Assembly: GCA_020629335.1 (NCBI GenBank)
Contig: JAHDDN010000239.1
Coordinates: 1-8,083, forward strand
DNA from: Chitinophagales bacterium
GTDB taxonomy: Bacteria > Bacteroidota > Bacteroidia > Chitinophagales > UBA2359
Direction: 5' to 3'
DNA length: 8,083 bases
Positions 3,221 to 7,967 of the stretch are shown here, piece after piece. Position 1 is the stretch's first letter; the number at the start of each line of letters is the position of its first letter. The notes under the pieces were generated by a model. It saw only the letters and a list, made by a program, of their open reading frames with translations. It ran no database searches and was not told where the DNA came from. The translations under genes and the position numbers were made by a program.

Positions 3221-3318
3221 CCCAATTTATTTTTGACCATCGTTGGGCCGACACACAGGTATGGCCCCTACATAACGATGGTCAAAAATAAATTGGGGAA
3301 GCCCCCAAAATAAAAAAA
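3221..3318. repeat. Dispersed palindromic repeat, copy 1
   Basis: Two 24-nt arms (3221-3244 and 3274-3297) are perfect reverse complements. The loop holds a nested 5-bp stem, GGGCC (3245-3249) with GGCCC (3263-3267), around GACACACAGGTAT. The right flank GGGGAAGCCCCC then AAAATAAAAAAA (3295-3318) and the core GGGCCGACACA recur at the right end of the window (copy 2), which makes this a dispersed family, not a chance hairpin. No transposase is present. It is most like a REP or MITE-type non-autonomous element, but its family was not identified. Confidence 0.8.
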
Positions 3319-3474: not shown

Positions 3475-3828
3475 TTGAAATCTATACAAACATGGGTTAA
3501 AATGCTGTTTTTGCCAGTGTTATTGATTCCCGTCTTAATGGCTTGCCATTCTTCTCAAAATAATAATGAGGCCAGTGCTGAAAAAGCTGAAATGTCTGTT
3601 CAACAACTGATTCTTCAACTTAATACCGATAATATTGATGTGGTGCTTGCGGATCATCAACATTATGATATGAAAATGGTTAAAAAGATAGCTCCTAATC
3701 TCAAAATGTGGGTGGTAAGGGTTCAGCATAAGGCAGATATCTCTGTTGAGAAACTGCTGCTTGATATCAAATCGCATGATTTTGTAACGGAAGCTCAAAC
3801 AGATAAGAAAATACAAAGCCGTGAATAA
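3475..3828 (+). CDS. Small lipoprotein resembling a free-standing subtilisin propeptide (I9-like)
   Basis: This 117-residue protein is not a family I recognise by name. Residues 1-23 form a lipoprotein signal: Lys2 and Lys9, hydrophobic MLFLPVLLIPVLMA, and a lipobox ending LMAC with lipidated Cys24. A polar linker (25-38) leads to a domain of about 78 residues (40-117). By eye this parallels the propeptide of the downstream protease: NIDVVLAD with NIDKVVSD, LKMWVVRV with MRIWLLEF, SVEKLLLDI with NVERAMDFI, and endings KKIQSR with HYIEQR. I infer an I9-type fold acting as protease inhibitor or folding helper, anchored in the cell envelope. The start is a TTG at 3475; the first in-frame ATG (3502) would lose the positive n-region, and a stop at 3463 blocks any earlier start. 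No acidic surface-export signal follows Cys24, which favours a periplasm-facing position. The gene is certain enough; the function is a hypothesis. Confidence 0.8.
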   Translation: MKSIQTWVKMLFLPVLLIPVLMACHSSQNNNEASAEKAEMSVQQLILQLNTDNIDVVLADHQHYDMKMVKKIAPNLKMWVVRVQHKADISVEKLLLDIKSHDFVTEAQTDKKIQSRE

Positions 3829-3846
3829 GGCTATTATTGATATTCT

Positions 3847-3922
3847 GAACTCATTTAAAGTTTTTCTGCTGGCTTAGAAAATAGTTGATTTTCAGCTTCA
3901 TCATAAAACTTTAAATGAGTTC
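3847..3922. repeat. 18-bp perfect inverted repeat between lipoprotein and protease genes
   Basis: The arms at 3847-3864 and 3905-3922 are perfect reverse complements (GAACTCATTTAAAGTTTT and its complement). Within the 40-nt loop a second small stem, GAAAAT (3877-3882) with ATTTTC (3888-3893), closes on AGTTG. The structure starts 18 nt after the lipoprotein stop and ends 67 nt before the protease start. No T-tract follows the right arm, so it is not a standard terminator. A transcript-stabilising, processing or regulatory stem-loop, or a small mobile remnant, are possibilities. Confidence 0.75.
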
Positions 3923-3989
3923 TCTATCTCCAACAAATCATAAACAAATTAGAAACAAGATTTAACAATATCCAATTAAAAAAAATTTA

Positions 3990-6900
3990 ATGAGAACATT
4001 TACTAACTTTTCTAAAATTTTCTGTTTCCTGAGCATTTTGGCGCTCTCCATAGCTGTTCAAGCTGATACGCCTTATGTGAGTAATCAGGTAATGGTACAA
4101 TTACTACCAGATCGTAATATTGATAAGGTAGTATCAGATCTCTGGAAAATGGGGATGAATGATGTTACGATTAAAAGAACGGTTTCTAAGCATATGAGAA
4201 TATGGTTATTAGAGTTTGACGAGACTGAATTTAATGTAGAAAGAGCGATGGATTTCATCTATAATCAACAAGATGTATCTGTGGTTCAGCCTAATCACTA
4301 TATTGAGCAAAGAGTCGAGCCTAATGATCCTAATTTAGATGAATGTTGGCATTTCCCTATAATGGATGCCGCAGAAGCTTGGGATTTTGCCACAGGAGGT
4401 ACAACAGCAATGGAGGATGAGATTGTCGTTTGTGTCGTTGATGGTGGATTTACGGATGGTCATAATGATTTACAAGATAACTTATGGATCAATGATGCAG
4501 AGGCTAATGGTACCAATGGGGTAGATGATGATGGAAATGGTTATGTAGATGATGTGTATGGCTGGAATGCTGATAATAACAATCCAAATGTATTTGGAGG
4601 ATTTGTAGGACATGGTGCTACGGTTTCTGGTTTTATTGGGGCTGATGGCAATAATGATAATGGCATTACTGGAGTCAATTGGAATGTAAAAATCATGACG
4701 GTTCCTGGTGGTGGTAATGAAGCAGCAGCATTGTCTGCTTATGCTTATCCTTTAGAATTGCGTAAAATGTATAATGAATCCGCTGGAGATGAAGGCGCTT
4801 TTGTAGTGGCGACTAATTCTTCTTGGGGAATTGATTATGGTCAGCCATCTAGTGCTCCTTTATGGTGTCAGTTTTATGATACTTTAGGAGTATACGGCAT
4901 CTTAAGCGCAGGAGCTACAGCTAATGCAAGTATTAATGTTGATACACAAGGCGATTTGCCAACGGCATGTAGTAGTGATTATTTAATCTCTGTAACTGCA
5001 TCTAATAATGCTGGTAATTTCTCTGGCTGGTCTGGTTATGGTGAAACAACTATCGACTTAGCTGCTCCTGGTGATAATGTTTATGGTTTATCTAATGGCA
5101 ATGGCTATAGCCCTACCAGTGGTACTTCTTTTTCTACACCATTAGTAGCAGGTACAGTCGCTTTATTATATTCTGTTGATTGCTTGGGATTAGCTCAATA
5201 TGCTTCTTTTGAACCAGGGGAAGCAGCCTTAACTGTAAAGCAAGCGATCTTAGATGGCGCAGAGACAGGCGATACTTATGAAGGGCTTTGTGTAACAGGT
5301 GGTAATTTGAATTTATTAGGTGCCGTGGAAGCTTTACAAGAATTTGATTGTAGTGGTAGTGGCTGTTTCGCTCCAAATGGTTTAGCGGTTTCGGAAGTAG
5401 GATTAGATGGTGCCCATGTCAATTGGAATGGCTTAGGTGATTTTGATGGCTTTAATCTTAGTTATAGTGTAGTAGGAACTGGGGAATGGACAGATATTGA
5501 GCAAGGGGAAGAAGCAGTAGTCTTAGAAGGCTTAACACCTTGTACTGAATATGAAATCTCTTTAACCTCTGTTTGTGGGGAAGATAGCAGTGAGCCGAAT
5601 GTCATTATGTTCCAAACAGATGGATGTTGTGATGCGCCAGTGGAGGCTATTTCAACTTATGAAGAAGATACTGATTTAACGATTACTTGGGATGCAGTAA
5701 CAATCGCCGAAACATATACACTACAAATCGCTCCAGAAGGTAGCGGTGATTGGACAGAATACACTTCTGATATGCCTTCTGTTTTTGTAGACGGATTAGA
5801 TGAATGCACTACCTATGATGTTCAAATCATGTCTAACTGTGGTGGCTTAGATAGTGGCTTCGGTCCAAGTATTCCTTTAACAACAGGTTGTGGTGCTTGT
5901 TTAGATGGCGAATATTGTGAAACCGATATTGCAGATAACTCTTATGAGCATATTTCGAATGTTACTTTAGCAGATATTGATAATGATAGTGGAGAAGATG
6001 ATGATGCTTATGGCGATTATCGTGAGATTAGCACTGACCTTACAGTAGGAGAATCTTATGATGTTTCTGTGTCCATTGGTTATTCTGGACAGGCTTATGA
6101 TGAGCACCTTAGAATTTGGATAGATTTTGATCAAAATGGATCCCATGATGATGATGAAATCGTATTCGAAGAAATTGGTTTCCAAGATTTAGCAGAAGGT
6201 ACATTGACAATTCCTGATGATGTTATTTTATCAGGCCCTACAAGCATGCGTCTGGTGGTTAGTGGTGCTGATAATAGCGGACTTCCTGAACCATTCGCTT
6301 GTGATGCAGTACCTTATGGTGAAGCAGAAGATTACTGTGTAAATATAGTTGGACTTTGTACTTATTCCGCAGATACTGAAAGTGTAGATGTGGTTTGTAG
6401 TGGTGAAGAAAGTGGTAGTGCTACCGTAATTCCTTCAGCTGGTGAAGTAGAAGATTATACTTACAATTGGCAAGGAATTGATAATACAACTAACACTTTA
6501 ACGGATGTTCCAGCAGGTATCTATACTTTAGTCATGTCTGATGGCGATTGTGAAACAACAGTAGAAGTTGAAATTGAAGAACCTAATGCTTTAGAAGCAA
6601 CTCCTTCTTCAGAAGATGCTAATGATGGCCCTAATGGAGTCGCAATGGTTGAAATGAACGGCGGTACTTCCCCTTATACTTATGAGTGGACAGACTTCCC
6701 TGATGTAAACGAGGATACAATAGAAGATGTAAGCCCTGGAATTTATGAGGTAACGATTATGGACTTCAATGGCTGTATGACTACTGCTACTGTAGAAGTA
6801 AGTTGTGGTATCGCTTTAGCGAATGATTTCTTAGCTCCAAGCTGTAATGATGGCGAAGATGCTATGGCAACAGTCATCATTGAATCAAGTGGTGGGGCTG

Positions 6901-7967
6901 GTGATTATACTTACGAATGGGAAGATTTCCCAGATGAATCTGGAGATATGATTGAAGGCCTAAGCGCAGGTAGCTATACAGTGAACGTTACAAGCGATGA
7001 TGGTTGTGGTTCTTCTATCACCATAGACATTCCTAATCCTGATCCTATTTCTGCTACTAGTTCAAGTGAAGATGCAACAGACGGAGATAATGGAACCGCT
7101 TCCTTAGAGGTAGAAGGTGGTACTGGTAATTATACTTTCCAATGGGCAGACTTCCCTAATGAAACTGGTTCTACAGTAGAAAATGTAGGCCCAGGCACTT
7201 ACTTCGTTGAAATCACAGACGACTTAGGTTGTGAAGCCTTAGCTACGGTGATCGTAGGTTGTGGTATTGACATCAGTGCTTCTACAGAAGATGCAGAATG
7301 TAATGGTGCGGAAGATGGTAGCATCAGTGTAGATGTTACTGCGGGTGGTACGCAAGAATTAACTTACTCATGGGATGGCTTAGATAATACAACAGGCGAA
7401 ATCGAAAGCATCGGTGCAGGTGTTTATGAAGTAACAGTTAGTAATACACTAGGTTGTTCTGAAAACTATACTATCATCGTAAATGAGCCAGATGCAATCG
7501 ACTTAGATGGCGAAAGTACTGATTCAACTGATGGGGAAGATGGTACAGCTACTGTCAATGCTGATGGAGGTGCTGGCGACTTCTCTTACAATTGGGAAGA
7601 TTCTGATGCAACTGGCAATACTTTAGAAGGTTTAGGCGCTGGCGATTATACAGTAGTAGTAACAGACGGCAACGGTTGTGAAGAAAGCATCACGATCACA
7701 GTAGAAGGAGCTGGTGTAGCTATTGAAGAATTAAATATCGCAGGCTTGGAAGTATATCCAAATCCAGCTAAAGATCAGTTATTCATCAATATGAATGAAA
7801 GCATTGACCAAATTGAAATCATCAATATCTTAGGTCAAAATGTTCAAACATTCACTCAAGTAATGACTCAAAACACAATAAACATCGAAGCATTAAACGC
7901 AGGTGTTTATACAATCATCTTAACGGATGGAACGAGTCAATCAGCAGTGAAGTTTCTTAAGCACTAA
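3990..7967 (+). CDS. Secreted S8 subtilase with FN3, GEVED and SprB repeats and T9SS sorting domain
   Basis: This 1325-residue multidomain serine protease is exported by Sec and then, by its tail, by T9SS. Order: signal peptide 1-25 (cut after VQA); I9-like propeptide about 29-108; S8 domain about 115-450 with Asp151 (VVDGG), His208 (GHGATVSG), oxyanion Asn276 (TNSSWG) and Ser380 (GTSFSTPLVAG); a DDDGNGYVDD stretch at 179-188, likely calcium-binding; FN3 domains about 459-544 and 547-632; GEVED domain about 635-786, ending YGEAEDYCVNI; six SprB-like repeats 790-1240; type A sorting domain about 1250-1325 (VYPNPAKDQLFI, ILGQNVQ, LNAGVYTIIL, ending KFLKH). The complete triad suggests activity, though DGG and HGAT depart from the commoner DTG/DSG and HGTH. 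The many Asp/Glu residues make it strongly acidic. It is probably surface-attached or released, for degrading proteins or adhering. The ATG follows an A-rich leader and gives a perfect signal peptide. Confidence 0.95.
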   Translation: MRTFTNFSKIFCFLSILALSIAVQADTPYVSNQVMVQLLPDRNIDKVVSDLWKMGMNDVTIKRTVSKHMRIWLLEFDETEFNVERAMDFIYNQQDVSVVQPNHYIEQRVEPNDPNLDECWHFPIMDAAEAWDFATGGTTAMEDEIVVCVVDGGFTDGHNDLQDNLWINDAEANGTNGVDDDGNGYVDDVYGWNADNNNPNVFGGFVGHGATVSGFIGADGNNDNGITGVNWNVKIMTVPGGGNEAAALSAYAYPLELRKMYNESAGDEGAFVVATNSSWGIDYGQPSSAPLWCQFYDTLGVYGILSAGATANASINVDTQGDLPTACSSDYLISVTASNNAGNFSGWSGYGETTIDLAAPGDNVYGLSNGNGYSPTSGTSFSTPLVAGTVALLYSVDCLGLAQYASFEPGEAALTVKQAILDGAETGDTYEGLCVTGGNLNLLGAVEALQEFDCSGSGCFAPNGLAVSEVGLDGAHVNWNGLGDFDGFNLSYSVVGTGEWTDIEQGEEAVVLEGLTPCTEYEISLTSVCGEDSSEPNVIMFQTDGCCDAPVEAISTYEEDTDLTITWDAVTIAETYTLQIAPEGSGDWTEYTSDMPSVFVDGLDECTTYDVQIMSNCGGLDSGFGPSIPLTTGCGACLDGEYCETDIADNSYEHISNVTLADIDNDSGEDDDAYGDYREISTDLTVGESYDVSVSIGYSGQAYDEHLRIWIDFDQNGSHDDDEIVFEEIGFQDLAEGTLTIPDDVILSGPTSMRLVVSGADNSGLPEPFACDAVPYGEAEDYCVNIVGLCTYSADTESVDVVCSGEESGSATVIPSAGEVEDYTYNWQGIDNTTNTLTDVPAGIYTLVMSDGDCETTVEVEIEEPNALEATPSSEDANDGPNGVAMVEMNGGTSPYTYEWTDFPDVNEDTIEDVSPGIYEVTIMDFNGCMTTATVEVSCGIALANDFLAPSCNDGEDAMATVIIESSGGAGDYTYEWEDFPDESGDMIEGLSAGSYTVNVTSDDGCGSSITIDIPNPDPISATSSSEDATDGDNGTASLEVEGGTGNYTFQWADFPNETGSTVENVGPGTYFVEITDDLGCEALATVIVGCGIDISASTEDAECNGAEDGSISVDVTAGGTQELTYSWDGLDNTTGEIESIGAGVYEVTVSNTLGCSENYTIIVNEPDAIDLDGESTDSTDGEDGTATVNADGGAGDFSYNWEDSDATGNTLEGLGAGDYTVVVTDGNGCEESITITVEGAGVAIEELNIAGLEVYPNPAKDQLFINMNESIDQIEIINILGQNVQTFTQVMTQNTINIEALNAGVYTIILTDGTSQSAVKFLKH
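6357..7709 (+). repeat. Six SprB-like repeats arranged as three A-B pairs (inside the subtilase gene)
   Basis: Protein residues 790-1240 hold six immunoglobulin-like repeats of about 75 residues, each with the pattern G-G-x-x-Y-x-W, then G-x-Y-x-V-x-V and a Cys near the last hairpin. Units alternate: A (790-865, 940-1017, 1092-1168) has extra N-terminal cysteines, while B (866-939, 1018-1091, 1169-1240) begins with an SEDA-DG-NG-like stretch instead. The pair repeats every 149-152 residues. SprB repeats are known from the gliding adhesin SprB and other Bacteroidota surface proteins. Confidence 0.85.

What the first reader, a model, noticed from the sequence alone, without database searches (positions are those of the whole stretch)
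3475..7967. Candidate lipoprotein propeptide paired with a T9SS-exported subtilase
Seen: the small lipoprotein (Cys24 lipobox) just upstream of the subtilase has a C-terminal domain that parallels the subtilase's own propeptide over about 78 residues. Shared anchors in the same order are NID-VV-(A/S)D, (K/R)-hydrophobic-W followed by a beta-strand, a VE(K/R) helix, and a C-terminus ending I-(Q/E)-(S/Q)-R. Known: I9-type propeptides fold and inhibit subtilisins, and free-standing versions exist as inhibitors (yeast IB2, Pleurotus POIA1), acting through their C-terminal tail. Inferred: the lipoprotein is a membrane-tethered inhibitor or folding chaperone that guards the periplasm until the protease leaves through T9SS, in effect an immunity-like partner. 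By-eye identity is modest, so shared ancestry is a hypothesis.
Basis: partly seen in the sequence, partly recalled or inferred. Interest (0 to 1): 0.72.

Follow-up and report, generated by a model that had tools for sequence, protein, structure and literature searches.

The report
Membrane-tethered prodomain guarding a secreted protease
A small lipid-anchored protein encoded next to a secreted protein-cutting enzyme is a free relative of that enzyme's own built-in safety cap and probably keeps the enzyme off while it crosses the bacterial envelope; several related bacteria carry the same gene pair.

Summary
The C-terminal domain of the 117-aa lipoprotein (3475-3828) is homologous to the propeptide of the S8 subtilase beside it (3990-7967): a prodomain HMM built without the window's subtilase scores it 26.0 bits (best of 20,000 shuffles 14.9; [quoted passage not shown] It belongs to an unnamed family: 42 clusters, 42/42 ending Q-x-[N/D]-x-x-hydrophobic-x-x-R plus 1-5 residues. 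In 12 of 12 Flavobacteriaceae-type genomes the gene lies -4 to +12 bp upstream of a fused-prodomain S8 subtilase; in three Saprospiraceae-type loci it follows one. Best reading: a tethered, product-like trans inhibitor guarding the periplasm until T9SS exports the protease. Inhibition is inferred, not shown. Against: one Arg-tailed relative has no S8 neighbour, and tail-less relatives sit beside T9SS M14 carboxypeptidases or T9SS proteins without a recognised peptidase domain, so a broader T9SS-cargo role is possible. Precedents: eukaryotic stand-alone propeptide inhibitors and Tannerella potempins. New variant of a known kind.

The parts
3475..3828 (+). 117-aa lipoprotein carrying a free subtilase prodomain (TTG start; alternative ATG at 3502)
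3475..3546 (+). type II signal peptide ending in lipobox VLMA-C24
   Evidence: sequence; a Cys followed by Lys or His stands in this alignment column in 42 of 42 cluster members
3592..3825 (+). prodomain-like domain, residues 40-117, predicted b-a-b-b-a-b fold
   Evidence: HMM match 44-117; AlphaFold2 block pLDDT 93-97 for residues 41-110, strands 40-49, 67-72, 78-86, 104-109 and helices 54-60, 91-99
3796..3825 (+). product-like tail Q108-T-D110-K111-K-I113-Q-S-R116-E117
   Evidence: pattern present in 42 of 42 relatives; model end aligned with the end of the BPN' prosegment in 1spb_P
3847..3922 (.). perfect 18-nt inverted repeat (3847-3864 / 3905-3922) in the 161-bp gap between the two genes; possible terminator or attenuator
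3990..7967 (+). 1325-aa T9SS-type S8 subtilase, the presumed partner
4065..4313 (+). the subtilase's own covalent prodomain, ending Q100-P-N102-H103-Y-I-E-Q-R108
   Evidence: Q, N and R invariant in the 32-row alignment
4416..5177 (+). Peptidase_S8 catalytic domain (residues 143-396)
   Evidence: Pfam PF00082 E=1.3e-26; model aligns with pro-Tk-subtilisin
7752..7952 (+). Por_Secre_tail, T9SS type A sorting domain (residues 1255-1321)

Best explanation
The lipoprotein is a free, lipid-anchored subtilase prodomain that acts in trans as a guard of the adjacent T9SS protease. Inferred working: it is exported by Sec, lipidated at Cys24 and held at the periplasmic face of a membrane by a linker of about 15 residues. 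The prodomain-fold globule docks on the subtilase as the covalent propeptide does, the Q108-x-D110 pair caps two catalytic-domain helices, and the tail lies in the non-primed cleft with I113 in S4 and R116 in S1, like a cleavage product. It thereby silences subtilase molecules that mature or lose their own propeptide before T9SS carries them out. Shown here: homology, predicted fold, conserved tail, lipobox and conserved gene pairing. Inferred: inhibition, its geometry, the site of action and the timing.
Against: No inhibition data and no complex model. Arg-tailed L177 has no S8 gene in the 8.5 kb fetched. Tail-less relatives lie beside M14 carboxypeptidases (2) and beside or near T9SS proteins with no recognised peptidase domain (8), so the fold may serve T9SS cargo more widely. 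In the window the gap is 161 bp with an inverted repeat, so co-transcription is not assured. The free tail carries one to five residues past the Arg and could be a substrate rather than an inhibitor. The structural rows are tied with generic ferredoxin-like folds, Foldseek alone gave no match at E<=0.001, and the tail has pLDDT of about 58.
Confidence: 0.68

Rival explanations
1. Trans-acting folding chaperone (steric foldase): the tethered prodomain helps the partner subtilase fold in the periplasm, as membrane-anchored Lif foldases do for lipases (Lif is recalled, not looked up).
For: Subtilase propeptides are known foldases (PMC6993865, abstract start and passages); the same fold and pairing are seen here.
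Against: The partners keep their own prodomain (window; 12 Flavobacteriaceae-type partners); of the 80 subtilase loci only L042 shows a short free prodomain ORF; a second subtilase in genome G712 was matched without a free prodomain match on that contig. The product-like tail is strictly conserved, which suits inhibition.
Confidence: 0.12
2. General T9SS-cargo partner: lipoproteins with this fold hold or escort T9SS cargo in the periplasm whatever its catalytic class, and protease inhibition is at most one version of that job.
For: Tail-less relatives lie beside T9SS M14 carboxypeptidases (L178, L179), beside a T9SS-type protein of 1024-1118 aa without a peptidase domain (L116, L180-L184, and L115 with one ORF between) and near a PNGase-F-like T9SS protein (L117).
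Against: The S8-adjacent members keep the Arg tail and the tail-less ones lie elsewhere; some tail-less members match the prodomain HMM weakly (L180 8.7 bits, L179 14.6 bits).
Confidence: 0.13
3. The lipoprotein protects against other proteases (of competitors or from the environment), and the gene pairing reflects co-regulation only.
For: DUF6438-fused relatives carrying a similar Arg tail have no S8 gene in the flanks fetched, nor has L177.
Against: Tight pairing with one subtilase type in 12 of 12 genomes with -4 to +12 bp spacing, and again in three distant loci with reversed order.
Confidence: 0.05
4. A degenerate fragment of a duplicated subtilase gene without function.
For: Homology to the prodomain alone.
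Against: Own signal peptide and lipobox; 42 clusters with an invariant tail; dN/dS about 0.1 in the pair with the lowest dS.
Confidence: 0.02

Closest known systems
Stand-alone subtilisin propeptide-like inhibitors: POIA1, yeast proteinase B inhibitor (YIB2), plant SPI-1, TgMIC5, Plasmodium SUB1-ProM (PMC6993865, passages read; PMC10580911, passages read)
   Same: Free protein with the propeptide fold; a C-terminal tail and a capping pair corresponding to Glu69/Asp71 of BPN'; SUB1-ProM is also encoded next to subtilase genes.
   Different: Those named in the passages read are eukaryotic. This family is bacterial, has a lipobox, is encoded directly beside its presumed target and is linked to type IX secretion. 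Inhibition is measured for those and not for this one.
Potempins of Tannerella forsythia (small lipoproteins directly preceding KLIKK protease genes; PMC4404884 and PMC7296668, passages read)
   Same: Small lipoprotein encoded directly before a secreted Bacteroidota protease; described there as inhibitors specific for the downstream protease (citing unpublished data).
   Different: PMC4404884 reports no significant sequence similarity among the six lipoproteins. Whether any potempin has a prodomain fold was not tested here, and no potempin sequence was compared.
Spi/SpeB and Bfi or Bti inhibitors of C10 proteases (PMC3462683, passages read)
   Same: Small inhibitor co-encoded with its protease; the B. 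thetaiotaomicron Bti proteins are predicted to be exported and some to be lipoproteins. That Spi resembles the SpeB propeptide is recalled.
   Different: Cysteine (C10) proteases; the Bacteroides inhibitors are called staphostatin-like there, not propeptide-like.
Pfam Inhibitor_I9 (PF05922) and Fervidolysin_NPro-like (PF22148)
   Same: Prodomain families. Of six Flavobacteriaceae-type partner subtilases scanned, two reach the PF22148 cut-off with their own prodomain (L042 31.1 bits, L131 29.9 bits; cut-off 21) and L132 comes close (19.8); the window's subtilase stays below it (12.4 bits, E=0.21).
   Different: None of the 41 lipoproteins scanned (38 Arg-tailed, 3 tail-less) reaches either model.

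Membership tests
Subtilase prodomains (as a homologue) | Sequence homology to prodomains of S8 subtilases | tested here: met
   26.0 bits against at most 14.9 in 20,000 shuffles; hhalign probability 99.4
Subtilase prodomains (as a homologue) | b-a-b-b-a-b fold of the prodomain | tested here: met
Pfam Inhibitor_I9 (PF05922) | Score at or above the curated cut-off | tested here: not met
   No PF05922 match for the window lipoprotein at E<=1 nor for any of the 41 members of A6 at E<=0.01
Stand-alone propeptide-like subtilase inhibitors | Free-standing, no catalytic domain in the same polypeptide | tested here: met
   117-aa ORF with its own stop; 42 free clusters of 90-134 aa
Stand-alone propeptide-like subtilase inhibitors | Substrate-like C-terminal tail at the position of P1 | tested here: inconclusive
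   Conserved Arg in 42 of 42 at the end of the prosegment by VIA end points, exact with 1spb_P and one residue off with 2z57_B; tail pLDDT about 58 and no complex model
Stand-alone propeptide-like subtilase inhibitors | Measured inhibition of a subtilase | not testable with these tools
   Needs purified proteins
Potempin-type protease/lipoprotein pairs | Small lipoprotein gene directly preceding a secreted protease gene | tested here: met
   12 of 12 Flavobacteriaceae-type genomes at -4 to +12 bp, window at 161 bp; order reversed in L174-L176
Potempin-type protease/lipoprotein pairs | Homology to a potempin | not tested
   No potempin sequence was fetched; the paper looked up by DOI is not held

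The most novel reading that the evidence does not exclude
Bacteroidota own a family of lipid-anchored, free prodomains that guard type IX secretion cargo hydrolases in the periplasm, with the C-terminal tail encoding the target class: an Arg-ended product-like tail for S8 subtilases, no tail for M14 carboxypeptidases and for a still unrecognised hydrolase of about 1,100 aa, and DUF6438-fused versions acting on unlinked subtilases.
Probability: 0.3. Interest if true: 0.78.

Novelty: new variant of a known kind. Interest (0 to 1): 0.62.

Why it matters
T9SS proteases pass through the periplasm before export (recalled), so how a cell survives its own potent proteases there is a standing question. 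A conserved, gene-linked, membrane-tethered prodomain offers a directly testable answer and a sequence signature for finding protease/guard pairs. It would extend stand-alone propeptide inhibitors, named only from eukaryotes in the passages read, to a lipidated bacterial form, and it gives function hypotheses for proteins now called hypothetical or DUF6438.

Tried and rejected
Plain searches failed: PDB phmmer with the window protein gave nothing relevant; the lipoprotein alone found one relative in the protein database and none in genome contigs. Profiles of the fused prodomains and of the free members found no solved prodomain by sequence. Searching 60 relatives of L001's genome with the window protein alone found nothing. 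A sampled phylum search (345 genomes, at most 13 candidates scored per genome) found the short form only in G001, and a sampled order search (395 genomes, at most 12 per genome) likewise; both are insensitive by design. In one search a seventh short frame (125 aa, genome G118) matched only the signal-peptide part of the model and was not counted. The Bacteroidota -7 promoter motif (recalled) occurs no more often than by chance (10 found, 9.15 expected).

A single origin of all free prodomains was considered. With all columns the free/fused split has support 97/96, but without the tail columns it appears in only 30% of 200 bootstrap trees, so it is not claimed. The grouping of the window's member with DUF6438 lipoproteins held in both trees (96/85 and 98/94). 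dS was saturated or could not be computed in nearly all comparisons. The lipobox regex matched 36 of 42; a recount by alignment column found Cys followed by Lys or His in 42 of 42. The upstream check looked on one side only, which read all six frames of the same loci, covers the other side. Ten paper searches were made: held no bacterial stand-alone prodomain lipoprotein among the listings, (DUF6438) found no paper, and led to the precedents cited. The gingipain propeptide paper PMC3677877 (one passage) was not relevant. The library holds only part of the literature.
Full report
WHAT IS THERE. The window carries, left to right, the end of a PDZ protein, a polypeptide deformylase and a RuvX gene (minus strand), an M32 carboxypeptidase, a 117-aa lipoprotein at 3475-3828 and a 1325-aa subtilase at 3990-7967. 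The lipoprotein has a signal peptide ending VLMA-C24, a linker of about 15 residues and a C-terminal domain. The subtilase has S8, fn3, GEVED, six SprB stretches and a T9SS type A sorting tail. The Asp (VVDGG), His (GHGATVSG) and Ser (GTSFSTP) motifs are visible in its translation; that these are the catalytic triad is recalled. No whole genome is held for the window.

Direct BLASTP between the two is weak (17% identity, E=0.010). The subtilase belongs to a large Bacteroidota family (at least 2638 proteins at E<=1e-20, best 120 listed), which allowed a prodomain HMM from 113 relatives with the window's own left out; six other rows were dropped because their tail pattern was not found. That HMM hits the lipoprotein at residues 44-117 with 26.0 bits (E=4.7e-10 for one sequence) and its close relative P0003 with 41.2 bits; the best of 20,000 shuffles was 14.9. 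Profile against profile, 21 fused and 19 free prodomains give probability 99.4, E=4.3e-21, over 74 columns through to the final Arg.

THE TAIL. The VIA alignment with 1spb_P runs from model residue 42 to 116 and chain residue 7 to 77, the last of that 77-residue prosegment; with 2z57_B it ends one residue later, at 117 (ranges give end points only). In the 1spb_P register Q108 and D110 stand on Glu69 and Asp71, which PMC6993865 (passages) names as helix-capping residues, I113 stands at P4 and R116 at P1. All 42 free clusters end Q-x-[N/D]-x-x-hydrophobic-x-x-R plus 1-5 residues, 28 of them with exactly one; the P4 residue is Val in 37, Ile in 4 and Leu in 1. One residue separates free from fused: after the Asn, 109 of 118 fused prodomains have His (2 of 120 rows did not fit the pattern), while 0 of 42 free ones do (19 Lys, 19 Arg, 2 Gln, 1 Gly, 1 Ser); the residue after the Arg is Asn in 32 of 42 free and 6 of 118 fused. 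The pattern used for these counts itself requires the Asn and the Arg; both are invariant in the alignments (15 rows; 32 rows, overlapping sets). The meaning of the lost His is unknown.

THE FAMILY AND ITS PAIRING. The search with a profile of eight free members, which takes only proteins of about lipoprotein length, returned 42 clusters, none with a precomputed Pfam domain; where a source gives a description it is hypothetical or uncharacterized protein, among them Altibacter sp. HG106, Aureisphaera galaxeae and Aureitalea marina. A Cys followed by Lys or His stands in the lipobox column of 42 of 42. Short-frame prodomain matches were found in 6 of 299 genomes of L042's family (L042's record title says Flavobacteriaceae), 4 of 5 of its genus, 6 of 60 relatives of G160 and 2 of 40 relatives of G209, 12 distinct genomes in all. 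In 12 of 12 the next gene on the same strand is a fused-prodomain S8 subtilase, the start codon lying -4 to +12 bp from the lipoprotein's stop if the ATG before the signal peptide is taken; one of these subtilase frames (L162) is cut by the contig end. Of these 12 partners six were scanned: 6 of 6 have S8 and Por_Secre_tail domains, and two reach the cut-off of the Pfam prodomain family PF22148. In the window the distance is 161 bp and holds a perfect 18-nt inverted repeat. The partner is optional for the enzyme: in the 80 loci, read in six frames, L042 alone shows a short free prodomain ORF (same result for 77 genes with at least 700 bp upstream), and G712 has a second matched subtilase on another contig without a free prodomain match there.

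BEYOND FLAVOBACTERIACEAE. Among 120 genomes of G314's family (G314 holds L014, titled Saprospiraceae) 58 have a match at E<=1e-8 and 14 matches lie in frames under 200 aa; 13 were read and one (on G744) was not. Three Arg-tailed ones stand downstream of an S8 subtilase with no gene seen between (L174, L175, L176). One Arg-tailed one (L177) has no S8 gene in the 8.5 kb fetched. Nine are tail-less: two abut T9SS M14 carboxypeptidase genes (L178 just after one, L179 with the carboxypeptidase frame starting at its end); five lie directly upstream of a T9SS-type protein of 1024-1118 aa with no peptidase domain in Pfam (L180-L184) and one (L115) upstream of the same kind with a 198-aa ORF between; one (L117) lies 290 bp from a PNGase-F-like T9SS protein. 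The sorting tail of the L182 partner is below the Pfam cut-off; those of L180 and L181 are below Pfam's but above NCBIfam's. L116, is another directly upstream case; these seven partner proteins share 41-46% identity with the L180 one. L118, also, is a tandem pair of tail-less lipoproteins with no such neighbour seen. So of 17 Arg-tailed single-domain lipoproteins whose surroundings were read, window included, 16 adjoin an S8 subtilase. Scored without their signal peptides, L174-L177 match the prodomain HMM at 37-44 bits, L178, L181, L183 and L184 at 21-22, L179 and L182 at 14-15 and L180 at 9 bits, so the weakest tail-less members are uncertain kin. A third form joins DUF6438 (PF20033) to a C-terminal prodomain ending at or near Arg; DUF6438 was confirmed in L119, L123 and L126, with a match below cut-off in L125; L120, L121, L122 and L124 look alike but were not scanned. 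In one search, 31 matches lie in frames of 240-291 aa, which is that length (one is L121; the others were not checked). No S8 gene was found in L115-L127.

ORIGIN. In a 67-row tree on 80 columns the free and fused prodomains separate with 97/96, and the window's pair groups with DUF6438 lipoproteins (96/85). With the tail columns removed the free/fused split falls to 30% of bootstrap trees, while the window/DUF6438 group stays (98/94). L174-L177 were found later and are not in these trees. The window's gene may therefore have come to its subtilase separately from the Flavobacteriaceae pairs, which would be a repeated recruitment; with so few columns this is a lead, not a result. Free members differ more than their partners' catalytic domains (40-80% against 79-95% identity in the pairs printed; L160 failed extraction and L132 was not included); the pair with the lowest dS gave dN 0.12, dS 1.21.

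HOW IT LIKELY WORKS. Established for subtilases: the propeptide's C-terminal tail binds the active-site cleft in a product-like manner (PMC10580911, passages). T9SS cargoes cross the periplasm before export (recalled). Inference: a tethered second prodomain at the periplasmic membrane face captures subtilase that has shed or lost its own propeptide and keeps it silent until export. Gene order and overlap would give matched synthesis. The residues after Cys24 (HSSQNNNE) show no acidic cluster of the kind recalled for surface export of Bacteroidota lipoproteins, which fits a periplasmic place; this was not tested.

WHAT IS KNOWN. PMC6993865 (passages) lists stand-alone propeptide-like inhibitors from a mushroom, yeast, a plant and Toxoplasma and adds SUB1-ProM of malaria parasites, whose gene also neighbours subtilase genes; no bacterial example appears in the passages read. 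PMC4404884 (passages) reports that all Tannerella KLIKK proteases are preceded by small putative lipoproteins of mutually unrelated sequence, and PMC7296668 (passages) calls them potempins with inhibition specific for the co-expressed protease, citing unpublished data. PMC3462683 (passages) describes co-encoded, exported, partly lipidated inhibitors of C10 proteases in Bacteroides. The present family works like these in design, if inhibition is confirmed, but is defined by prodomain homology; it fails the Pfam I9 score and was not compared with potempins. Searches for a published account found none in the library held.

VERDICT. Observation confirmed; interpretation supported, with inhibition still inferred. 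A new variant of a known kind, of interest for T9SS self-protection and as a predictor for unnamed lipoproteins.

Noticed in passing
L178:1542-4316 and L179:3994-6710: Tail-less prodomain-fold lipoprotein genes abut T9SS-type M14 zinc carboxypeptidase genes, a second protease class whose own propeptide fold is similar (recalled).
   Followed up: partly
L116:804-4290, L180:3910-7818, L181:4250-7893, L182:4093-7799, L183:4033-7563, L184:139-3848; L115:438-4842 with one ORF between: Tail-less lipoproteins upstream of a conserved T9SS-type protein of 1024-1118 aa (alignment A8) with no peptidase domain in Pfam; possibly an unrecognised hydrolase.
   Followed up: partly
L119:4213-4986, L123:4715-5542, L126:4459-5655: DUF6438 (PF20033) lipoproteins carry an unannotated C-terminal subtilase prodomain ending at or near Arg, with no S8 gene in the flanks fetched.
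   Followed up: partly
window 4296-4298 (H103) against 3805-3807 (K111): The His after Asn in the tail is kept in 109 of 118 fused prodomains and in 0 of 42 free ones, which have mostly Lys or Arg; its role is unknown.
   Followed up: partly
window 3221-3244 / 3274-3297: Perfect 24-nt inverted repeat with a 29-nt loop downstream of the M32 carboxypeptidase gene, similar in design to the 18-nt one between lipoprotein and subtilase.
   Followed up: no
L118:4600-5455: Tandem pair of tail-less prodomain-like lipoproteins with no T9SS protease gene seen adjacent.
   Followed up: no
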